From: Pseudomonadota bacterium
GTDB lineage: Bacteria; Myxococcota_A; UBA796; GCA-2862545
Assembly (NCBI GenBank): GCA_005776945.1
Contig: SXOB01000013.1
Location: 1 to 36,315 of the forward strand
Reading direction: 5' to 3'
DNA length: 36,315 nt
Made by a program: the position numbers and the translations under genes. Positions 8,521 to 35,225 of the stretch are shown here, one piece after another; the stretch's first letter is position 1, and each line of letters opens with the position of its first letter. The notes beneath the pieces were generated by a model that saw only the letters and a program-made list of their open reading frames with translations, did not search any database and was not told where the DNA came from.

Positions 8521-9033
8521 TCAAATTCGGGTGCAGGCACCGATGAGCGGCGGTTCGTGGGTGAGTTGGATGGTGCGACTGGTCAGCGCCTGGGCGGGCT
8601 GGGTGGACGCCGAAGGGAATGTGCTCGGGTAGGCGCGCTGAGCCGCTGCGTACACTTCGGGGCGAACGGCGTCGTCGCACCCGAGCAGCGTCGTGAATGC
8701 GGCCAGGTGTTCACCGCCACCCGCCGCGATGTCGCGCTGCCACGCGTCGAAGTTCGCCTCGACGAAGGCCTCCTGCTCCTTGTCGGTGAGGACCAGGCCC
8801 TCCGTGGTGCAGTTGGACACGCCGAAGGTGATCGCGAACGTCTGGTTCCAGAAGATGTTGTTCGTGGTCGCGGCGAAGATCTGGAGGATGCCGTTGGTGT
8901 CGCCGAAGGCGCCGTCCGTGGCGTCGGCCGTGACGGCCAGCGAGCCGAGCCCGCAGCCCGCCATTCCGTAGCTCGCGTGGGCGACGCCGGGGGTGGCGAG
9001 TGCCGCCAAGGCGTAGAACATGTTCCTGGTCAA
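8521..9033 (-). CDS. DUF3015 family exported protein (copy 2), probable TTG start
   Basis: A paralogue of the following gene: both share YGMAGCGLGS, QIFAATTN, the run DKEQEAFVEANFDA, RDIAAGGGEHLAAF, TLLGC and a final Cys-x-Arg-Ile. It carries an insertion of about ten residues after the GCGLGS block. The nearest ATG (9021) lacks a well-placed ribosome site, whereas the TTG at 9033 has GGAG about 9 nt upstream and gives the better signal peptide MTRNMFYALAALATPGVAHA, cleaved before SYG. It heads the DUF3015-DUF3015-DUF4105 operon, divergent from cphA across 107 bp. The tandem copies look like an old duplication, since flanking parts have diverged while the central block is nearly identical. 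Confidence 0.86.
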   Translation of the reverse strand: MTRNMFYALAALATPGVAHASYGMAGCGLGSLAVTADATDGAFGDTNGILQIFAATTNNIFWNQTFAITFGVSNCTTEGLVLTDKEQEAFVEANFDAWQRDIAAGGGEHLAAFTTLLGCDDAVRPEVYAAAQRAYPSTFPSASTQPAQALTSRTIQLTHEPPLIGACTRI

Positions 9034-9140
9034 GGGGCGCTCTCCTGCGAGATCGTGGCCACGTACCCGAAGGTGCGCCACGCGCAAGGGGCGGGCAGGT
9101 CGCGGGCGGTGGGGTAGGGTGCGGCCCGGTCGGAGGCCCG
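9034..9140. promoter_or_regulatory. Divergent intergenic region between DUF3015 operon and cphA
   Basis: These 107 bp separate two divergent operons and must carry both promoters and ribosome sites. On the plus strand, TAGGGT (9115-9120) lies 20 nt before the cphA ATG and could be a -10 hexamer, and GGAGG (9132-9136) is the cphA ribosome site. I see no convincing -35 or operator. Assignment as a promoter is positional inference. Confidence 0.35.
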
Positions 9141-11918
9141 ATGCGCATCCTCGAGCAGCGCACCTACGTTGGACCCAACTTGTACGCACGCTTCCCGGTG
9201 ATCCGGATGACGCTGGACCTTGGTCCGCTCGAGGAGTGGCCGTCCGCCCGGATCCCAGGCTTCGTGGACGCGTTGCTTGGCCATCTGCCGTCGCTCGCCG
9301 AACATGGCTGTAGCTACGGCGACGCTGGCGGCTTCGTCCGACGGATGCGGGAGGATGGCGGCACGTGGCTCGGGCATGTGCTGGAGCACGTCGCCATCGA
9401 AATCCAGAACCGTGCTGGCAACCAGGTGACCTTCGGGAAAACGCGCGGGACCGGTGTGCCCGGGCAGTACCATGTCGTGTACGAGTACGAAGATCCGTGG
9501 GTCGGCGAGGCCGCGGGCCCCTTGGCCTTGCGCCTGCTCCATGGCCTCGTTCCGGCTGAACTCCGTCCCGACGCGGCCGACGACGGTCCCTTCGACGTCG
9601 AAGCGGAGATGGAAACCTTCATCCGCCAGGCCGAGCGCCGCGCGTTCGGCCCGAGCACGTTGAGCCTCGTCCGTGCCGCGCGCGACCGCGACATTCCCTG
9701 GATCCGACTCAACGACCACAGCCTCGTCCAGTTTGGCCACGGCCGCTTGCAGCGCCGCATCCAAGCCACGGTGACGAGCGAGACGCGACACATCGCCGTG
9801 GACATCGCGTCGGACAAGGAGCTGACGAATCGGATTCTTGGAGACGTCGGTCTTCCCGTTCCCAAACAGGTCGCGGTGTGGCAGGAGGACGCGGCGGCGC
9901 GGGCGGCTCGTCGGATGGGCTACCCCGTCGTCGTCAAGCCGCTTGACGCCAACCACGGCCGCGGCGTGTCCATCGGCCTTGCCGACGAGGCGGCGGTACG
10001 CCATGCGTTCGGGTTGGCGCGGGAACACGCGCGCACCGTGCTCGTCGAGCAGATGATCCAAGGCCTCGACCACCGGTTGCTGGTCGTGAACGGCGAATTG
10101 GTGGCGGCCAGCAAGCGCGTGCCGGGCCATGTCGTGGGCGACGGCATCACCACGGTGTCCGGCCTCGTCGAGCGCGTCAATCAGGACCCCCGGCGAGGCA
10201 TCGGGCACGAAAAGGTGCTCACCCGACTCGAACTCGATCACCAGGCCCTGCGGCTGCTGGCGGAAGCGGGCCATACGCCCGAGAGCGTCCTGCCCGACGG
10301 CCAGTTGTTTTACCTTCGGTCCACGGGCAACTTGTCGACCGGCGGTACAGCGATCGACGTCACGGACATCATCCACCCCGACAACCGGGACATGGCCGTT
10401 CGTGCGGCGGGCACGATTGGGTTGGACGTCTGCGGCGTCGATTTTCTCACGCCCGATATTTCGCGCTCCTACAAAGAAGTGGGCGGCGGGATTTGTGAGG
10501 TCAATGCGGCCCCGGGCTTCCGCATGCACGTCAGCCCAAGCGAAGGCACGCCTCGCGACGTCGCCGGCGCCGTCCTCGACATGTTGTTTCCCGGGGGGTC
10601 GCCAAGCCGCATTCCGATCGCCGCGATCACGGGGACCAACGGCAAGACGACGACCACGCGCATGTTGGCGCACATTCACAAGCTCGTGGGTCGAACGGTC
10701 GGCATGACCACGACCGACGGCGTCACCATCGACGGGCATCGGACCGTGGACGGCGACATGACGGGCCCCATCGCCAGCCAGATGGTCCTGCGCGATCCGA
10801 CCGTCGACTGCGCCATCTTGGAGGTTGCGCGCGGCGGGCTCTTGCGGGCGGGCTTGGGATTCCGGCACCCCGATGTGGCGTGCTGTCTGAATGTGGCCGC
10901 CGACCACCTCGGATTGCGGGGCGTCGACACGCTCGACCAGCTGGCGGAGGTGAAGCGGATTCCCATCGAGGTGGCGCGCGACACGGTCGTGCTGAACGCC
11001 GACGATCCGCGCTGTCTCGAAATGGCAGACCATTCCGTGGCCAAGCACATCGGCTACGTGACGATGAATCCGGTGCATCCGCTGGTCCGCGCCCACATTC
11101 GGGCTGGCGGCCGCGCCGCGACGCTGGAGGCGGGCGTCAACGGCCAGATGATCACGCTCTACGACAAGGGCGCCCATATGCCCTTGTTGTGGACCCACCT
11201 CATTCCGGCGACGCTGGAGGGGCGCGCTCATCACAATGTGCAGAACGCGATGTTTGCCGCCTTGATGGCCCACGCCATGGGCGTGCGGCTCGACGACATT
11301 CGTCACGGCCTGCGGACCTTCGACACGAGCTTTTTCCAGGCGCCGGGCCGGATGAACGTGTTTGACGGCCACGGTTTCAAGACGATTCTCGACTACGGCC
11401 ACAACCCGGCCGCAGTGACCGCCATGTGCGAGCTCGTCGACCGCCTTTCGGAAGGGCTCAAGGGCGCGCGAATTGTCGTGCTGGCGGCGCCGGGGGACCG
11501 GCGAGATGAGGACATCGACGCGATCGCGACGCGCGCCGCGTCGAGCTTCGACCGATTCGTGGTCCGAGAGGACGACGACCGACGCGGTCGGGCCGTCGGT
11601 TCGATCGCTGCCCGGCTTCGCGACGGTCTGCTCGCGGCCGGCGTCTCCGATGACCGGATCGACGTGGTGTTCGACGAGACCCAGGCGGTCGAGCACGGCC
11701 TCACCGTCGCCCGGCCCGGCGACCTGCTGCTCATCTTTGGCGACCGGGTGACACGCTGCTGGAAGCAGATCATCTACCACGGTGGGGCGAGCCCGCAGCC
11801 GGCTCCGGCGCCGGTGATTTCCGCACCGGTCGAGGAATCCACGGAGGTGGATTCTGGTTTGGGCCAACGTCTGATTCGCGACGCCCGGGGCGTTCGTGTT
11901 TCGGCGGTGGAGGACTGA
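9141..11918 (+). CDS. cphA: Cyanophycin synthetase
   Basis: A 925-residue enzyme that polymerises aspartate and arginine into cyanophycin, a cytoplasmic nitrogen, carbon and energy store. Domain order is canonical. The N domain (1-160) includes GTWLGHVLEHVAIEIQ and YHVVYEYEDP. The ATP-grasp domain (about 215-490) has HIAVDIASDKELTNRIL, YPVVVKPLDANHGRGVS, HRLLVVNGELVAASKR and GGGICEVNAAPGFRMH. The Mur-ligase-like domain (about 495-880) has the P-loop GTNGKTTTTR near 498, EVARGGLLRAGLGF, NVAADHLGL, SFFQAPGRMNVF and DYGHNPAA. All catalytic landmarks appear intact. GGAGG lies 5 nt before the ATG. The stop overlaps the start of the next gene by one base (TGATG), so a CphA-like partner is co-translated. 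No cyanophycinase is visible in the window. Confidence 0.97.
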   Translation: MRILEQRTYVGPNLYARFPVIRMTLDLGPLEEWPSARIPGFVDALLGHLPSLAEHGCSYGDAGGFVRRMREDGGTWLGHVLEHVAIEIQNRAGNQVTFGKTRGTGVPGQYHVVYEYEDPWVGEAAGPLALRLLHGLVPAELRPDAADDGPFDVEAEMETFIRQAERRAFGPSTLSLVRAARDRDIPWIRLNDHSLVQFGHGRLQRRIQATVTSETRHIAVDIASDKELTNRILGDVGLPVPKQVAVWQEDAAARAARRMGYPVVVKPLDANHGRGVSIGLADEAAVRHAFGLAREHARTVLVEQMIQGLDHRLLVVNGELVAASKRVPGHVVGDGITTVSGLVERVNQDPRRGIGHEKVLTRLELDHQALRLLAEAGHTPESVLPDGQLFYLRSTGNLSTGGTAIDVTDIIHPDNRDMAVRAAGTIGLDVCGVDFLTPDISRSYKEVGGGICEVNAAPGFRMHVSPSEGTPRDVAGAVLDMLFPGGSPSRIPIAAITGTNGKTTTTRMLAHIHKLVGRTVGMTTTDGVTIDGHRTVDGDMTGPIASQMVLRDPTVDCAILEVARGGLLRAGLGFRHPDVACCLNVAADHLGLRGVDTLDQLAEVKRIPIEVARDTVVLNADDPRCLEMADHSVAKHIGYVTMNPVHPLVRAHIRAGGRAATLEAGVNGQMITLYDKGAHMPLLWTHLIPATLEGRAHHNVQNAMFAALMAHAMGVRLDDIRHGLRTFDTSFFQAPGRMNVFDGHGFKTILDYGHNPAAVTAMCELVDRLSEGLKGARIVVLAAPGDRRDEDIDAIATRAASSFDRFVVREDDDRRGRAVGSIAARLRDGLLAAGVSDDRIDVVFDETQAVEHGLTVARPGDLLLIFGDRVTRCWKQIIYHGGASPQPAPAPVISAPVEESTEVDSGLGQRLIRDARGVRVSAVED

Positions 11919-13549
11919 TGAGGCTGCTGGAGTGCCGGCGCATTCACGGGCCACACTGGTTGCTGCCCGGCCCGGGAGCGGCGGCGGAATGGCACGCCGA
12001 GGAGGGGGACGACGTCGATGGCGCCGTCGCGCAATGGTCGGCGCGCGCAACCGAGCGGATGCGCTCGTTGGGGTGGATTGGCGACGTCGTCGTGCGGCGG
12101 CATCGGCTTGGCGCCTCGCTGGCGTTGCCAGCGCCCGTGGACCTGACGATGGCGGCCACGATCGTGTTGGAGGAGGCGGCCAGCGAGGACGTTTCGCACA
12201 CGGCCGTGGACGACGAAATCCGGCTGCGGTCGCGACCCGCCCTGCGGCAGGCCGTGGCCTGGGCCATGCAGTCGAGCGTCCCCTGGCAACTCGACGACGA
12301 GGTCTTCACGATCGGGCAGGGTCGCAATGCGCGTTCGTGGCAGGCCGATCAGGTGCCGCCGGTGGCCGAGTTGACGCCCGCAAGCGCCATTCGAACCATC
12401 CTCGTGACGGGTACCAATGGGAAGACGACGACCACGCGCCTGTTGGCCCACCTTTTCCGACGATTGGGCGACCGTGTCGGGATGACGTCGTCGGACGGCA
12501 TCCAGATCGACGGACAATGGGTGGTCCGCGGGGATTGGTCCGGCCCAGGTGCGGCCCGCCGTGTGCTGCGCGACCCCCTCATCGAGACGGCGATTTTGGA
12601 AACGGCGCGCGGCGGGTATTTGCGGCGGGGTCTGGCCGTTTCGGACGCCGACGTCCTCGTGATCACGAATGTCGCTCCCGACCACCTCGGCGAATGGGGG
12701 ATCGACGACGTCGAGGCGATGGTGGACTGCAAGTTGTCGATGATTCGCGGCTTGCGCCGGGGTGCCGTCGTCGTCGTCAACGAAGGCTGTGCTCGGCTCT
12801 TCGAGCGCGTCCTGACCCTCCGCCGCGAGCGCGCGGATCTGCGCTTCACGACCTTCCAAGACGGCCCAACGGGCGACCTCGTCTGCCGAAATGGTGCCAT
12901 CATTTCGGAGGCGCGCCACGTTGGCGATGCGGTGGACCTGCCGATCACGCTTGGCGGCCGCCTGCCGTTCAACACACAGAATGCGCTTGCGGCCATGTTG
13001 GCGGCGCGCGCCCTTGGGATCGATCCGTCGGTGTCGTTCCCGATTCTTTGCGAATTTGAGCCGTCGGCCGATTCGAGCCGCGGGAGGGCGAACCTCTACG
13101 ATTTGCACGGGGCGATCGTCCTCGTGGATTTCGCCCACACACCCGACGCGGTCGCGGAATTGCGTCGCGTCGCGCGAGCGGGTCGCGGCCGGTCGACGAT
13201 GTTGTTGGGCCAGGCAGGCGACCGCACGGATGCGCTGATCGACGAGCTCGGACGGGCGGCGGCGGGACTTGGGCTCGACCGCTATGTGCTCAAGGGGATG
13301 CCGAGGCAGCTCAGAGGCCGCGCTCCGGGCGAGGTGGAAGGGCGCTTACGCCGCGCCTTGATCGGCGCCGGAATTCCCGATGACCACGTCGTCGAAGCGT
13401 CCGACGAACGCATGGCGGCGGCGATGGCGCTCAAGGGGGCGCGCAGCGGGGACCGCATCCTGCTCTTGGTCCACGACGCGTGGGAACACGTCGTAGGCGA
13501 TCTCATGGCGATGGGGGCCCGGCCGTTGACGCGGTGGCCGGAGGGGTGA
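11918..13549 (+). CDS. CphA-like Mur ligase protein lacking the ATP-grasp domain
   Basis: A 543-residue paralogue of the C-terminal and N-terminal parts of CphA. Residues 1-130 resemble a reduced CphA N domain. The linker VPWQLDDEVFTIGQGRNARS aligns with CphA's IPWIRLNDHSLVQFGHGRLQ. In CphA that linker is followed by the ATP-grasp domain, but here the Mur domain follows almost at once (P-loop GTNGKTTTTR at about 165). LETARGGYLRRGLAV, NVAPDHLGEWG, NTQNALAAMLAARALGI and DFAHTPDAVAELRR show an intact Mur-type ligase core. It could still ligate an amino acid to a side chain, the job of the Mur domain in CphA, but not extend the aspartate backbone. Coupled to cphA through TGATG. A role as accessory or alternative side-chain ligase is inference. 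Confidence 0.88.
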   Translation: MRLLECRRIHGPHWLLPGPGAAAEWHAEEGDDVDGAVAQWSARATERMRSLGWIGDVVVRRHRLGASLALPAPVDLTMAATIVLEEAASEDVSHTAVDDEIRLRSRPALRQAVAWAMQSSVPWQLDDEVFTIGQGRNARSWQADQVPPVAELTPASAIRTILVTGTNGKTTTTRLLAHLFRRLGDRVGMTSSDGIQIDGQWVVRGDWSGPGAARRVLRDPLIETAILETARGGYLRRGLAVSDADVLVITNVAPDHLGEWGIDDVEAMVDCKLSMIRGLRRGAVVVVNEGCARLFERVLTLRRERADLRFTTFQDGPTGDLVCRNGAIISEARHVGDAVDLPITLGGRLPFNTQNALAAMLAARALGIDPSVSFPILCEFEPSADSSRGRANLYDLHGAIVLVDFAHTPDAVAELRRVARAGRGRSTMLLGQAGDRTDALIDELGRAAAGLGLDRYVLKGMPRQLRGRAPGEVEGRLRRALIGAGIPDDHVVEASDERMAAAMALKGARSGDRILLLVHDAWEHVVGDLMAMGARPLTRWPEG

Positions 13550-30407: not shown

Positions 30408-30944
30408 GTGTTCCAAGGCGCGAAGGGGGACCCTACCGGATGGTTGACCTTGCAGGGGGCACCCCCACCCAAGGAGCGCCCGCCGCCGACGTCATGGTTC
30501 TGGGGATTGGTGGCGCTGGCGGCGGGCACGATCGCGTCTGCGAGCGTGGGGGGCGGCATCGCGTTGTGGGCGGTGTCGCGCCCCGCCCGGCCCGTGGAAC
30601 CCGCCGAGCGCTCGGCGGAGACGCCGGCGCCGACCCTCGCCCCGGTCGCTACGAAATCGACGCCATCGAGGCCGACGCTGACCCGAGGGAGCCCCGTTGT
30701 GGAGGTGATGGTCGACGGTGGGCCCTTTCACGGACTGGTTTGGACCTGCGGGGAAGCGAGTGGGCGGGTCGCGCTCGTCGGGGGGCGGGCGACCTTCCCG
30801 CGCGCAACGGAGGCCTGCACGGTGCGCTTGTTGGGTGGCGTGGCCGTCGAGCAGGAGGTGTCAGGTCCCGGCGAACAGCGGTGCCGGTGGCGGGGCGGCG
30901 ACTGGCGGTGTTGGACCGTCTCAGAGCCGCTTGAGTTGCCCTGA
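30408..30944 (+). CDS. Small single-pass membrane protein of unknown function
   Basis: A 178-residue protein starting at GTG 30408 with GGAGG 5 nt upstream. A Pro-rich cytoplasmic start (GAPPPKERPPPTSW) precedes one transmembrane helix (about 31-55, FWGLVALAAGTIASASVGGG). A Pro/Thr/Ala-rich spacer leads to a small periplasmic domain with cysteines (VWTCGEASGRVALVGG, EACTVRLLGG, EQRCRWRGGDWRCW). It resembles proteins with a PEGA-like or kinase-associated tail but no family is recognised. Its last 19 codons run antisense through the first copy of the 73-bp direct repeat, so its C-terminus may have been acquired when that DNA was placed here. Confidence 0.66.
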   Translation: MFQGAKGDPTGWLTLQGAPPPKERPPPTSWFWGLVALAAGTIASASVGGGIALWAVSRPARPVEPAERSAETPAPTLAPVATKSTPSRPTLTRGSPVVEVMVDGGPFHGLVWTCGEASGRVALVGGRATFPRATEACTVRLLGGVAVEQEVSGPGEQRCRWRGGDWRCWTVSEPLELP

Positions 30945-30960
30945 GGCCATGTCGTAGCGG
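30888..30960. repeat. 73-bp direct repeat, copy 1
   Basis: This segment matches 33712-33784 at 68 of 73 positions in the same orientation, 2,824 bp apart. In the second copy it spans the 3' end of the ABC ATPase gene plus 34 bp beyond the stop codon. The 34 bp beyond the stop differ at only one position between copies, so conservation is not limited to coding sequence. Confidence 0.9.
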
Positions 30961-30986
30961 CCGTCCGCCGTCCTCGTGCCGAACCG
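30921..30986 (-). pseudogene. 3'-terminal remnant of an ABC ATPase paralogue
   Basis: Read on the minus strand this gives RFGTRTADGRYDMASGQLKRL and a stop, matching the end of the ABC-type protein at 33745 (READARYEMASGHLKRL). An in-frame TGA lies one codon further upstream, and no ATP-binding part remains. The four base differences inside the shared coding part all fall in third codon positions of this minus-strand frame, two of them silent and two conservative (Asp/Glu, Gln/His). That suggests the ancestor of this copy was once a functional paralogue before its 5' part was lost. Confidence 0.65.
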
Positions 30987-31078: not shown

Positions 31079-32518
31079 ATGAACCTGGGCACTTGGTGGA
31101 TCACGGCGACCCTCGCCTGCGGTCCGGTGGCGGACGACGCTGGCCCTGCGGTGGGCACGCCCTCTGGGACGACCCCGCCCACCCAGCCGCCAGTGCCATC
31201 CGAACCGCCGCCAACGCCGGACCCGACGCCGCCGACGGTCACGACGCCGCCGCCGACCACAGTCCCCGTGCTTGGGCAAGACATCGAGACCGTGAACCTC
31301 GAGTTCGACCTGACCCTGCTCTCCGGCACCGCCACGTTGCAGGTTCAGCCCGACACGTTGACCCAGACGGTCGTCCTCGACGTTTCCGGGTTGACGCTGA
31401 GCTCCGTGACGGTCGATGGCGTGGCGGCGCCGCTGGACACGGTCGACGGCATGCTCCAGCTTTCGACGGGCACGGCCGCCAGTACGATTGTCGTCGACTA
31501 CACGTTTCCGACCCGCTCGGCGTGGCAATTCGATGGCTGGATGCCGTCTCTTGGCGTCTCGTTCATCTGGCCGTATTTCTGTGGCAACCTCTACCCGTGC
31601 GACCCTTCGACCACGGACGGCGTGGCTTTTACGATGCAAATCACGGGGGTACCCGACGGCCTCGTGGCCATATTCCCCACGGCGAGTTTCGGAGAAGGAC
31701 CCGCCTACATGCCGGGCATCGCGCTTGGCGACTACGTCCAGCTCGACCTTGGCGAAACACCGGCCGGGACGACGCTGACCGCCTGGTACTTCGACGAGCC
31801 AGACGGCCGCGCCCGCGCCGAGCAAGGCACAGCCTACCTGCTCGACGCCTTTGACTTTTTCGAGGAGAACTACGGTCCGTATTCCTTTGGTCCGACCTAC
31901 GGGACCGTGGAGGTCGACTGGGGTTGGGACTCCTACGGCGGAATGGAACACCACCCGATTTCGCACGTGGGGACATTCGACCTCGATGACGTGGAGGCGC
32001 AGGTCCACGAGGCCGGTCACGGGTGGTTCGGTGACGGCGTCCGCATCGCTTGTTGGGAGGACTTCGTGCTTTCGGAGGGCACGAACACCTACATCACGGC
32101 CCGGGCCGTCCAGGAGGTCGGTGGACCGGACCTTTGGCCCTACTACGTCGACTTCTTCCTTCGCCCGTCGTGCGAGGAGGCGGGTGGGTACGCGAATCCG
32201 GTGGTCATGCCGGCAGGCTGCAGCCTGACCGATTTCATCCACGACGACCTGTGGTCCTTGGCGACCTATATGAAGGGTGCCTGCTATTACGGCGAGGTGG
32301 CCGACCTCGTAGGCGCCGACGTCCTCGACGATATGATCGGCGGCTTCTACAACAGCCACGTGGGGACGGCCGCGGAAATGGAGTGGATGACGGATTGGAT
32401 CGAGGCCTCGGCCGACCCGGCCCACGCCGTGGGCTTGGAGCAGCTCCGCGTCGAGTGGCTGGAGACGGCCGCATGCCCCACCGACTACGCCGATCGCTGT
32501 CGGGTGCGGCTCCCCTGA
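31079..32518 (+). CDS. Peptidase M1-type metallopeptidase lipoprotein
   Basis: A 479-residue predicted lipoprotein: MNLGTWWITATLAC gives a lipid cysteine at 14. A Pro/Thr linker runs to about 62. An M1-like N-terminal beta domain follows (VNLEFDLTLLSGTATLQVQP). The catalytic region has GGMEHHP, a variant of the exopeptidase motif GAMEN, then HEAGH (310-314) and Glu333 in LSEGTNTY, giving HExxH-x18-E for zinc. All zinc ligands are intact, so it should be an active surface or periplasmic metallopeptidase. The altered GAMEN suggests unusual substrate preference. It lies within the interval bounded by the 73-bp repeats. Confidence 0.88.
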   Translation: MNLGTWWITATLACGPVADDAGPAVGTPSGTTPPTQPPVPSEPPPTPDPTPPTVTTPPPTTVPVLGQDIETVNLEFDLTLLSGTATLQVQPDTLTQTVVLDVSGLTLSSVTVDGVAAPLDTVDGMLQLSTGTAASTIVVDYTFPTRSAWQFDGWMPSLGVSFIWPYFCGNLYPCDPSTTDGVAFTMQITGVPDGLVAIFPTASFGEGPAYMPGIALGDYVQLDLGETPAGTTLTAWYFDEPDGRARAEQGTAYLLDAFDFFEENYGPYSFGPTYGTVEVDWGWDSYGGMEHHPISHVGTFDLDDVEAQVHEAGHGWFGDGVRIACWEDFVLSEGTNTYITARAVQEVGGPDLWPYYVDFFLRPSCEEAGGYANPVVMPAGCSLTDFIHDDLWSLATYMKGACYYGEVADLVGADVLDDMIGGFYNSHVGTAAEMEWMTDWIEASADPAHAVGLEQLRVEWLETAACPTDYADRCRVRLP

Positions 32519-32549: not shown

Positions 32550-32700
32550 CACGTCGCGCGAGCCGAATCCGGTGGTGCTCCGCGAGGTGGCTCACGCGTC
32601 GGACGCGCACAGGGTAGGGGGCGCGGCCCGGAGGCTTGCGGTCGGCGCAGCCTGGAGTACGCCACCCGGAGGTTAGGACGCGCCTATGCTCGAGGCCGAG

Positions 32701-33063
32701 ATGAACCCGCGGTACCTGATGCTGATGGCAACATTTGCCTGTGAACCCGAGCGCTCTCCGCCCATGGCGACCGTCTCGGCCGGCCAGACGATTCCGCCTT
32801 GGGAACCGATCGACCCGGCCTTCGAGGGGTGTTCTGGAGGTTGAGGGGAATCCAGCACCGGCAGTTCGCCGGACATCGCCCCTCAGCCTGGAACCGTCGT
32901 CGGCCAAAAGACCCTGTGTCCGGTCAGCGGCGCAGCCTTCACCGTTTCAGAAACGACCCCACGTCGCGAGCTGCGCGGAAAATCCCTGCATTTCTGCTGC
33001 GACGCCTGTGCGACGTACTTCGACGCGCACAGCGGCCACGTCCTGACGGTCCGAGGGCTGTGA
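32701..33063 (+). CDS. Candidate selenoprotein: lipoprotein with in-frame TGA (Sec48) and CPxxG...CCxxC domain
   Basis: One continuous frame of 120 codons with a TGA at codon 48 (32842-32844). Before it: MNPRYLMLMATFAC (lipid cysteine 14), a Pro-rich stretch, then FEGCSGG. After it: GESSTGSSPDIAP, then LCPVSGAAF near 75-81 and FCCDACATYF near 98-107, a TRASH/YHS-like cysteine domain of the kind that binds soft metals. Read with selenocysteine the motif is C44-x3-U48. The 72 codons after the TGA contain no ATG, GTG or TTG, so the second half cannot be a separate gene by ordinary initiation. A hairpin with bacterial SECIS geometry starts 13 nt after the TGA. The alternative is a nonsense mutation in a standard lipoprotein. 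ATG 32686 is also in frame; 32701 gives the better signal. Confidence 0.62.
32845..32882 (+). promoter_or_regulatory. Candidate bacterial SECIS element
   Basis: Directly after the TGA at 32842-32844. The upper stem is CCGGC (32858-32862) with GCCGG (32868-32872), a perfect 5-bp helix closing an AGUUC loop. The loop starts 18 nt after the UGA, with G at its second position. Published bacterial SECIS rules, as I know them, ask for an apical loop 16-37 nt from the UGA with a G among its first two bases; E. coli fdhF has an AGGUCU loop 17 nt away. GGGG right after the TGA can pair with CCCC at 32879-32882 to form a lower stem. Structure is by eye only. Confidence 0.5.
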
Positions 33064-33711: not shown

Positions 33712-33784
33712 TGGCGGGGCGACGACTGGCGGTGTTGGACCGTCTCAGAGCCGTTTGAGGTGCCCTGACGCCATTTCGTAGCGG
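33712..33784. repeat. 73-bp direct repeat, copy 2 (3' end of ABC gene)
   Basis: Matches 30888-30960 with 5 mismatches, no gaps. It contains the last 12 codons and stop (33745-33747) of the degenerate ABC gene plus 33 bp downstream. A repeated gene 3' end is the pattern left by site-specific integration or by duplication with loss of one 5' part. Confidence 0.9.
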
Positions 33785-34410
33785 GCGTCGGCCTCGCGGC
33801 CGACGTCGGCAAAGCGGGGGATGAACAGCGCGCCGAGGCCGGTCTCGTCGCGCAAACGGACGAGCAGCTCCCAGCGCATGGCGTCGAGCGAGCGGTCGAT
33901 GGGGGCCTGGTCGACGAGCAGGAGCGCGACGCCTTCCGCCAGGCAACGGGCCCACGTGAGGCGGATGCGTCCCCAGGCGTCGAATTCGTCGGGCAGGGCG
34001 TTCTGGACGCGTGCGAAGTCGACGCGTTCGAGGGCCAGGCGGGCCTTTTCCTCGCGCTCTTCACGGTGGACGCCTTGGAGGGCCAGGCCGGAAGCGACGA
34101 AGGTGAGGGCGCCCCAGCGGGGATGGGGGGTGGACCCCGGGCTGCCAACGCGACGGGCGATGGCGGCGGCGCGGGTCGGGACGTCGTCGCCTTGGACGGG
34201 CTGACCGTCGAGCAGGAGGGCGCCCTCGCCCGGCGGTTCGAAACCGCCAAGAATGCGGAGCAACGTCGAGCGGCCGCTCCCCGGGCTTCCGTGGAGGGCC
34301 GCGATCTTGGCGGCCGGAAGGCCGAGGTTGACGCCGTCGAGGACGCGAATGTCACGGGCCACACGAATCCAGGTGTGGGAGATGCCGACGGCCTCGAGGA
34401 CGGGCGTCAT
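33745..34410 (-). CDS. Degenerate ABC transporter ATPase-like protein
   Basis: A 221-residue protein with the overall layout of an ABC ATP-binding subunit, but each catalytic motif is altered. Walker A reads GSPGSGRST (41-49) with Arg47 for the invariant Lys. No Q-loop glutamine is seen near 90-100. The LSGGQ signature is replaced by LTWARCLAEG. Walker B reads VALLLVDQAP, with Gln168 in place of the catalytic Glu. No H-switch histidine follows (ALFIPRFADVG). The frame is intact and ATG 34410 overlaps the stop of the upstream methyltransferase gene (ATGA), so it is expressed and coupled. It may bind but not hydrolyse nucleotide, or act structurally. No permease gene is adjacent. Its 3' end lies in repeat copy 2. 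Confidence 0.82.
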   Translation of the reverse strand: MTPVLEAVGISHTWIRVARDIRVLDGVNLGLPAAKIAALHGSPGSGRSTLLRILGGFEPPGEGALLLDGQPVQGDDVPTRAAAIARRVGSPGSTPHPRWGALTFVASGLALQGVHREEREEKARLALERVDFARVQNALPDEFDAWGRIRLTWARCLAEGVALLLVDQAPIDRSLDAMRWELLVRLRDETGLGALFIPRFADVGREADARYEMASGHLKRL

Positions 34411-35225
34411 GGCCGACTGGCGAGCAGGAGGTCGCAGAGGGCGACGCGCGGGTCCGTCGCGAGGCCATGGCCCCGGAGCCACAGATGGTGGAGTTGGTAG
34501 GCGGGGACGGTCAGCCAGCGTTCTAATGGCGGCTGTTTGTAGGTCGGCATGTAGGGGTTGTAGGGCAGGACCTCGATGTCGCTGGCGCCGGCTTGGGCGA
34601 GCCAGCGTCGCCAGGCCTCGCGGTCGTAGGCCGTGCGGTGGAAGGTCGTGCGAGGCGCGGGGGTGCGCCGGAACCGTGCCTTGAGGGGCTCTGGGAGGAG
34701 GCGCCAGGGGGTGAAGAGGGCGCGGCTCAGTCGGCGACGGGCGTCGTCCATCTGGGGCACGACGACGAGAAAGAGGAGGCCGCCTGGGCGAAGGAGGCGG
34801 ACGGACTCGCGGAGCACTGGCAAGGGGTCGTCGAAGTGCTCGAGGAGACCGATGTTGACGACGACGTCGGCGATGGCGTCAGGCAGGCCGGTCTCACGGA
34901 CGTCGGCCTCCACCAGCGTCGGAGGGGGGAGGACTTCGTCGCGGAAGGCGGCGGCGGCTCGCTCCAGCGCGGTGGGGGACAGGTCGACGAGGGTGACGGG
35001 GCAGCCCCGCGCGGCCATGTACATCGAGGTGGTGCCGCGTCCGCTGCCGAGCTCCAGCACGTGGGGCGTCGGACCGAGGCCGCGGCGGGTGATCTCGGCC
35101 CAGAGGTCTTGGGCGTACAGGCGGTGCCAGAACTGGCGCAAGGAGGTCGGGCGGTTGCGCGTGTAGAGGCGGTCGGCGTCGCGCCACGTCGCGTCCCACT
35201 TCTCGGGTTCACCGGCGGTGGTCAT
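34407..35225 (-). CDS. Class I SAM-dependent methyltransferase
   Basis: A 272-residue Rossmann-fold methyltransferase. Motif I is HVLELGSGRGTT (about 55-66); the acidic residue of motif II is in VTLVDLSP; ADVRETGLPDAIADVVVNIG and LLEHFDDPLPVLRESVRLLRPGGLLFLVV give motifs III-V. The C-terminal part (FHRTAYDREAWRRWLAQAGA) is typical of methyltransferases acting on small molecules, quinones or sugars. The substrate is unknown. It is the first gene of a two-gene operon with the degenerate ABC protein, overlapped by ATGA, and is divergent from ychF across 118 bp. TAGCCG ends 6 nt before its ATG, which if it is a -10 would imply a near-leaderless message. Confidence 0.88.
   Translation of the reverse strand: MTTAGEPEKWDATWRDADRLYTRNRPTSLRQFWHRLYAQDLWAEITRRGLGPTPHVLELGSGRGTTSMYMAARGCPVTLVDLSPTALERAAAAFRDEVLPPPTLVEADVRETGLPDAIADVVVNIGLLEHFDDPLPVLRESVRLLRPGGLLFLVVVPQMDDARRRLSRALFTPWRLLPEPLKARFRRTPAPRTTFHRTAYDREAWRRWLAQAGASDIEVLPYNPYMPTYKQPPLERWLTVPAYQLHHLWLRGHGLATDPRVALCDLLLASRP

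What the first reader, a model, noticed from the sequence alone, without database searches (positions are those of the whole stretch)
32701..33063. Candidate new selenoprotein: short lipoprotein with in-frame UGA and a soft-metal-type cysteine domain
A single frame runs through TGA at codon 48. The upstream half has a lipobox and ends CSGG; the downstream half has CPVSG and CCDAC motifs and no ATG, GTG or TTG in 72 codons, so it cannot be started independently. The cysteine domain lies only in the readthrough part. The C-x3-U spacing next to a second cysteine set suggests a redox or metal/metalloid-binding surface protein. I know of no named selenoprotein family with this layout, but cannot search.
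Basis: partly seen in the sequence, partly recalled or inferred. Interest (0 to 1): 0.93.

Follow-up and report, generated by a model that had tools for sequence, protein, structure and literature searches.

The report
Selenoprotein cousin of mercury-resistance lipoproteins
This bacterial gene likely reads through an in-frame UGA stop codon by inserting selenocysteine, giving a small predicted surface protein; four of the six cysteine relatives whose neighbourhoods were examined sit beside mercury-resistance genes, so it would be a new family of selenium-based metal-binding proteins.

Summary
The frame 32701-33063 is open through TGA (codon 48), and the case for selenocysteine is strong. In 130 aligned family members, column 48 is Cys in 127 and TGA in three: this window and two other genomes (G451, G584). 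All three TGAs are followed by a hairpin fitting the published bacterial SECIS model; none of six Cys forms has one, and 49 of 649 window TGAs do. The genome carries selA, selB and tRNA-Sec; SelA was not found in G346, a Cys-form genome. Of 12 family members scanned, none passes an NCBIfam cut-off except one Tat-signal model, and no motif given in a 119-entry 2026 review table is C-x3-U.

Function is inferred. The downstream half is a weak TRASH/YHS-like cysteine domain. Four of six Cys-form loci lie beside MerB or MerT genes over Pfam (not NCBIfam) cut-offs; a fifth lies beside an HMA gene with a broken MerT-like stretch, the sixth beside a flavoprotein with TGA at its first redox Cys. No mer neighbour was seen at the three Sec-form loci, and the own genome has no MerA over cut-off. 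I read it as a cell-surface soft-metal (probably Hg) trap with a selenolate ligand; a purely redox role is the main rival.

The parts
32701..33063 (+). selenoprotein gene, 120 residues with Sec at codon 48; 33061-33063 is the terminal TGA
   Evidence: read-through translation; homology across the TGA
32686..32700 (+). possible upstream extension from an in-frame ATG (5 codons)
   Evidence: sequence; start not settled
32701..32742 (+). putative short lipoprotein signal peptide, Cys14 as the lipid-bearing residue (atypical lipobox TFAC)
   Evidence: sequence; the upstream neighbour (31079) starts with an equally short one, MNLGTWWITATLAC; inference
32830..32844 (+). C-x3-U motif, Cys44 to Sec48
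   Evidence: column 44 C in 130 of 130 rows, column 48 C or U in 130 of 130
32842..32844 (+). Sec codon TGA
   Evidence: Cys in 127 and TGA in 3 of 130 rows
32842..32885 (+). SECIS-like element: lower stem 32842-32848 with 32879-32885, upper stem 32858-32862 with 32868-32872, apical loop AGUUC 32863-32867
   Evidence: fold -21.1 kcal/mol, z -3.09; fits the published bacterial model, loop 18 nt after UGA
32917..33009 (+). TRASH/YHS-like cysteine domain core: C73-P-V-S-G, C99-C100-x2-C103
   Evidence: invariant columns among 22 rows; weak Pfam TRASH/YHS matches below cut-off; pLDDT block means 93-97 over residues 61-120

Best explanation
The gene at 32701-33063 encodes a likely selenoprotein: the in-frame UGA at codon 48 is predicted to be read as selenocysteine, and the product would be a small lipid-anchored protein outside the cytoplasm that catches a soft metal, most probably Hg(II), between the C-x3-U pair and a TRASH/YHS-like cysteine cluster. 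Shown: the frame; the Cys/TGA column in 130 family members, three of them TGA; the SECIS-like hairpin; selA, selB and tRNA-Sec in the genome; mer genes beside four of six Cys relatives examined. Inferred: Sec insertion itself, export and lipidation, and metal binding. In this mechanism the selenolate is the high-affinity first ligand, and the metal is then held or handed on to a membrane carrier of MerT type where one exists. In the three Sec-form loci, where no mer neighbour was seen, the protein would act alone as a scavenger.
For: Column 48 is C in 127 and U in 3 of 130 rows; C44, C73, C99 and C103 are invariant and C100 is C in 129. Two further TGA forms at the same column, G451 (C-x3-U) and G584 (C-x2-U); the six-row group of window, G451, G584, G346, G566 and G567 has support 100/99. 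Own genome: tRNA-Sec(TCA) over cut-off, SelA E 4.4e-116 with 2 of 14 control genomes ringing, SelB over cut-off with two SelB winged-helix domains. SelA was not found in G346, a Cys form, and was found in G000, G001, G019 and G377. Published bacterial SECIS model satisfied by 3 of 3 TGA forms, 0 of 6 Cys forms and 49 of 649 window TGAs. Neighbours of Cys forms over a Pfam cut-off: G346 MerB, G566 MerT and HMA, G567 MerT, G469 MerT and HMA; L055 HMA, with MerT-like pieces below cut-off.
Against: No selenium or metal data exist here. No mer neighbour was seen at the three Sec-form loci, and the own genome (90.5% complete) has no MerA over cut-off and no MerB hit, though the MerB control was silent. 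The MerB and MerT neighbours miss NCBIfam's stricter cut-offs (MerB 192.4 against 193; MerTP fusion 69-75 against 180). The hairpin is not unusually stable for this DNA: 40 of 650 window TGAs fold as well, z falls to -1.61 for 55 nt (11 of 200 shuffles as good), and the G451 and G584 hairpins are not better than shuffles (45 nt: z -1.01 and -0.56). E. coli fdhF, a true SECIS, fails my strict contiguous-stem version. The lipobox (TFAC) is atypical. SelA was not searched in G451 or G584, nor SelD anywhere.
Confidence: 0.6

Rival explanations
1. Selenoprotein, but with a redox job: C44 and U48 form a selenenylsulfide that reduces or senses oxidants or disulfides outside the cytoplasm, and the cysteine domain holds a structural zinc.
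For: The review says the majority of uncharacterised selenoproteins likely serve redox functions. TRASH/YHS-like domains resemble structural zinc-binding modules (recalled); the weak fold matches are hydroxylases and ribosomal chains. No mer neighbour was seen at the Sec loci.
Against: No thioredoxin-like fold appeared among the weak fold matches shown; four of six Cys loci examined are mer-linked; the spacing is x3 (x2 in G584), not mainly the common x2 redox motif.
Confidence: 0.3
2. Decayed gene: a Cys codon mutated to TGA, so that only a 47-residue stump is made.
For: Cys codons TGC/TGT are one base from TGA; no protein data; codon-position composition is weakly gene-like.
Against: Three genomes of separate families carry TGA at this one column, all keep the downstream cysteines, and all have a model-fitting hairpin; Sec machinery is present in the window's genome.
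Confidence: 0.04
3. Sequencing or binning error that creates TGA.
Against: The same column in three separate genomes; the window hairpin starts exactly at the TGA.
Confidence: 0.02

Closest known systems
NF041384, YHS domain-containing (seleno)protein (motif GxU in PMC13188914 Table 1)
   Same: A selenoprotein family with a YHS-type domain.
   Different: No match of the window protein at E up to 1 or 0.1, nor of the 11 relatives scanned. The motif here is C-x3-U before the domain.
Archaeal stand-alone TRASH protein of Sulfolobus mer operons
   Same: Small TRASH-type cysteine protein linked to mer genes (PMC3466566, passages seen).
   Different: That paper reports such proteins in 5 archaeal operons and in no bacterial one; the passages seen describe no selenium and no C-x3-U/C segment.
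MerP / NF041115 UxxU metal-binding (seleno)protein / MerT_CopZ_Se NF045683
   Same: Mercury- or metal-linked proteins, the latter two named as (seleno)proteins.
   Different: HMA- or MerT-type models; the window protein matches none of them. Only relatives P0002 and P0004 carry an extra HMA domain.
NF049942 DF family (seleno)protein (hypothetical protein DF of deep-Sep, PMC12013277)
   Same: Selenoprotein family that turns up beside Cys relatives: fused to MerB in G346 and stand-alone next to MerT in G566, over cut-off in both.
   Different: A different protein; both copies here have GCPH-type Cys and no in-frame TGA in their ORFs.

Membership tests
Bacterial selenoprotein | In-frame TGA aligned with conserved Cys in homologues | tested here: met
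   127 of 130 rows Cys, 3 TGA
Bacterial selenoprotein | More than one Sec-encoding sequence | tested here: met
   window, G451, G584
Bacterial selenoprotein | SECIS element just downstream of the TGA | tested here: met
   published model met by 3 of 3; background 49 of 649
Bacterial selenoprotein | selA, selB and selC in the genome | tested here: met
   for the window's genome only
Bacterial selenoprotein | selD in the genome | not tested
Bacterial selenoprotein | Selenium in the product | not testable with these tools
   needs 75Se or mass spectrometry
NF041384 YHS (seleno)protein | Score over the curated cut-off of 70 bits | tested here: not met
   no hit at E <= 1
Pfam YHS / TRASH domains | Score over gathering cut-off | tested here: not met
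   P0001: 15.4-16.9 bits against 27-30.3
Pfam YHS / TRASH domains | Fold match to a solved YHS/TRASH structure | tested here: inconclusive
mer operon protein | Gene lies with mer genes | tested here: not met
   not met at the window; met at four of six Cys-form loci for MerB/MerT over Pfam cut-offs
Bacterial lipoprotein | Signal peptide with lipobox | tested here: inconclusive
   TFAC read by eye, atypical; G566, G567, G469 and G584 show RR motifs and a lipobox-like Cys by eye; a Tat model passes its cut-off in G469 only

The most novel reading that the evidence does not exclude
A selenium-based mercury trap: a family of exported TRASH-like proteins linked to mer gene clusters has exchanged its metal-gripping Cys for selenocysteine in several Myxococcota, using the selenolate as an exceptionally tight Hg(II) or methylmercury ligand outside the cell. 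In the window's own family a Cys-form relative is paired with a flavoprotein carrying Sec at its first redox position, so selenium would serve both capture and reduction.
Probability: 0.35. Interest if true: 0.87.

Novelty: new variant of a known kind. Interest (0 to 1): 0.74.

Why it matters
It adds a selenoprotein family that is not thioredoxin-like by any match found here, and links selenocysteine to a bacterial TRASH-like protein whose relatives sit beside mer genes; a 2012 survey of 272 mer operons found stand-alone TRASH proteins only in archaea. It makes directly testable whether evolution uses selenocysteine as a mercury ligand. Gene callers that treat UGA as a stop would end the protein at residue 47, so such genes are probably lost from annotation.

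Tried and rejected
Searches with the window protein alone found little: genome contigs, no relative among 46 candidate stretches; protein database, none of 4 candidates; 58 relatives' genomes, two hits besides the own genome. Of these two, G005/L024 I judged chance: its frame holds TAG and TGA stops, and no profile hit appeared in G005. The A2 profile in viral contigs gave no relative among 16 stretches. L057 gave no row in the profile scan and is taken as chance. Plasmids searched with P0002 showed only its HMA part in the 20 rows listed of 4001 records. Most matches of the profile searches (77 of 377 genomes; 84 of 317) that I could read are a broader set of YHS/TRASH-like proteins without the DxxF..C-x3-C/U segment: 6 of the 27 loci L079-L105 have it, and of the class search only G000 and G019 have it, its other matches being CPVMG- or CGM-type domains. 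Matches without a locus were not read, so further TGA forms may be missed. In G584 the tool's own row began after the TGA; I saw it only on reading the frame.

I searched RF00023 (tmRNA) by mistake for tRNA-Sec. Hairpin stability alone was rejected as evidence. Structure search gave no clear match, PDB sequences none at E below 0.13. Paper searches behind the novelty claim: 'TRASH domain' with 'selenoprotein' 0 papers; 8 papers; 2; 24, 10 listed; 51, 10 listed; 1; 4. Of these I saw passages of PMC13188914, PMC9312934, PMC2398784 and, PMC12013277; the rest only as listings. Not tested: SelD, MerT in the own genome, SelA in G451, G584, G566, G567 and G469.

Full report
What is there. The window is contig C4 of a 3.88 Mb draft (92 contigs, 90.5% complete). 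Genome G019 is of the same family, and its contig C182 matches a record titled Myxococcales bacterium MAG in length and in the encoded protein, so the source is most likely an uncultured Myxococcota; its own name is not given. The frame 32701-33060 plus stop reads MNPRYLMLMATFAC...FEGCSGG-U-GESS...LCPVSGAAF...FCCDACATYF...RGL. The start, 32701 or 32686, is open. No start codon ATG, GTG or TTG lies in the 72 codons after the TGA. The open frame by itself is not remarkable: 212 of 648 window TGAs are followed by 72 open codons.

Homology across the TGA. Profile and protein searches found G019 (HMA-fused Cys form, CQAGC) and G346 (FEGCKASCG). The window and G346 share 43 of 86 residues. A protein search with G019 gave 7 hits, one of them its own record; one with a 10-row alignment gave 368 hits among the 7996 best-sharing candidates, of which 120 were listed. 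I aligned 130 rows: 8 loci and 122 database proteins, leaving out P0001 and P0010 (window forms), P0011 (longer start of G346) and P0002 (same gene as P0003). Column 44 is C in 130, column 48 C in 127 and U in 3, columns 73, 99 and 103 C in 130, column 100 C in 129 (U was written as C there, the three U rows being window, G451 and G584). The rows are the best hits of a profile that contains these columns, so conservation is favoured by selection; the 248 unlisted hits were not seen.

More selenocysteine forms. In the class of the window (71 genomes held), 9 genomes match the profile; only G000 and G019 have the C-x3-C/U segment, the others being CPVMG- or CGM-type domains. The class of G346 (317 genomes) holds two more TGA forms: G451, VDSGFSGCEGA-U-GARK, and G584, VDPTFADCGG-U-GSEP, one residue shorter between C and U. 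Cys forms of the same group are G346, G566 and G567; G469 is a more distant Cys form. A tree of 26 rows puts window, G451, G584, G346, G566 and G567 in one group (100/99), Sec and Cys mixed, inner order unresolved; long branches were flagged and the Sec rows are not clustered.

Machinery. Own genome: tRNA-Sec over the gathering score (63.6 against 47; the model passes in 5 of 14 controls) with anticodon TCA; SelA 388 bits, 2 of 14 controls ringing; SelB 256 bits against a cut-off of 242, with wing_2 and wing_3 domains. Of four further genomes, SelA was found in G001, G019 and G377 (the L055 genome) and not in G346. So the Cys forms of G019 and L055 occur in genomes with SelA: Cys forms are not confined to genomes without it. 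SelD was not searched.

SECIS. The 47 nt from the TGA fold to -21.1 kcal/mol, z -3.09, 2 of 200 shuffles as good; 45 nt z -3.31 (0 of 200), 55 nt z -1.61 (11 of 200). But 40 of 650 TGAs on both strands of the window do as well, so stability alone is weak. The rule in PMC13188914 (section 5 passages) asks for a loop of 3-9 nt, a stem of 4-16 bp, a G in the first two loop positions mostly followed by G or U, 16-37 nt from the UGA, and energy at most -7.5. My version (contiguous stem) is met by window (loop AGUUC, 18 nt), G451 (CGGUCG, 18 nt) and G584 (CGGUACG, 17 nt, energy -7.5 as printed), by 0 of 6 Cys forms, not by the G019 flavoprotein, and by 49 of 649 window TGAs; E. coli fdhF fails it, its predicted stem being interrupted. 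In a looser scan the loop GU lies at nt 20 after the UGA in window, G584 and fdhF, and 21 in G451; one of six Cys forms (G567) also has such a hairpin there, with 4 bp, and 104 of 650 window TGAs do. The choice of these tests came after seeing the hairpins.

What kind of protein. Pfam gives TRASH/YHS/Ta0938 below cut-off for the window protein and TRASH or YHS below cut-off for most relatives scanned; NCBIfam gives nothing for the window protein, and of 12 family members none passes a cut-off except the Tat-signal model in G469. The AlphaFold2 model has pLDDT block means of 93-97 over residues 61-120, mean 81.9, but only weak PDB matches to phenol/toluene hydroxylases and ribosomal chains. That the YHS domain occurs in those hydroxylases is recalled. 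By eye, G566, G567, G469 and G584 begin with RR motifs and a lipobox-like Cys, and G346 with a membrane span instead.

Neighbourhood. Cys forms: G346 next to MerB (Pfam 109.9 bits, cut-off 27) fused to a DF-family domain (98.8, cut-off 70); G566 divergent from MerT-HMA followed by a DF-family protein; G567 divergent from MerT with an ArsR-type regulator beyond; G469 overlapping a MerT-HMA gene; L055 followed by an HMA protein with MerT-like pieces below cut-off in two frames; G019 followed by a flavoprotein (MerA model 315 of 454 bits on the part after its TGA, below cut-off as for every other model). So 4 of 6 have MerB or MerT over a Pfam cut-off, 5 of 6 if HMA is counted. NCBIfam's stricter MerB and MerT models are not passed (192.4 of 193 for MerB; MerTP fusion 69-75 of 180). 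Sec forms: none seen in 3 (window 36 kb, 9 ORFs by Pfam, the rest by eye; G451 a 5.2 kb contig by eye; G584 two neighbours by Pfam, the rest to about 9 kb by eye, with only 1.4 kb of contig on one side). Own genome: of five MerA-model hits none passes; the two best read as lipoamide-dehydrogenase-like beside E2-type genes, by eye; MerB none, with a silent control. The mercury reading therefore rests on the Cys relatives.

Literature. PMC13188914 (section 7 parts 1-2 of 3 with the whole table, and passages) counts 119 families or subfamilies; no motif given is C-x3-U, though several entries give none, and its YHS entry is GxU. PMC12013277 (passages) reports nine new families and has no occurrence of 'trash' or 'mercur'. 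PMC3466566 (passages) found stand-alone TRASH proteins in 5 archaeal mer operons and in no bacterial one. PMC8261052, PMC2398784 and PMC9312934 were seen as passages. The library lacks most subscription papers, so a prior mention elsewhere cannot be excluded.

Verdict. Selenoprotein: about 0.93. Soft-metal, probably mercury, trap given that it is one: about 0.6-0.65. Hence 0.6 for the combined statement.

Noticed in passing
L059:819-2189 (-), genome G019: Flavoprotein of the MerA/lipoamide dehydrogenase kind with in-frame TGA exactly at the first redox Cys (GGT-U-VNEGC), just downstream of the HMA-fused Cys relative; no SECIS by the strict model. Possible second selenoprotein, a single sequence only; G019 has SelA.
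   Followed up: partly
L058:8708-9787 (+), genome G346: MerB fused to an N-terminal DF-family (seleno)protein domain (98.8 bits, cut-off 70), Cys form; G566 has the DF protein stand-alone beside MerT (L109:7956-8267). This links the unexplained DF family to mercury.
   Followed up: partly
L058:5987-6325 and many loci: A broad set of myxobacterial lipoprotein-like proteins with one to three YHS/TRASH-like domains (CPVSGEEF...CC..C), function not known to me; G346 has one about 4 kb from its C-x3-C protein.
   Followed up: no
window 30888-30969 and 33712-33793: 82-nt direct repeat, 91% identical, bracketing the M1-peptidase lipoprotein gene and the selenoprotein gene; the right copy overlaps the 3' end of an ABC ATPase gene (33745-34482, -). 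May mark an insertion or duplication.
   Followed up: partly
window 31079-31120 and 32701-32742: Two neighbouring genes begin with equally short putative signal peptides (13 residues before Cys).
   Followed up: no
window 9000-13549: Cyanophycin synthetase-like gene followed at once by a Mur-ligase-type gene.
   Followed up: no
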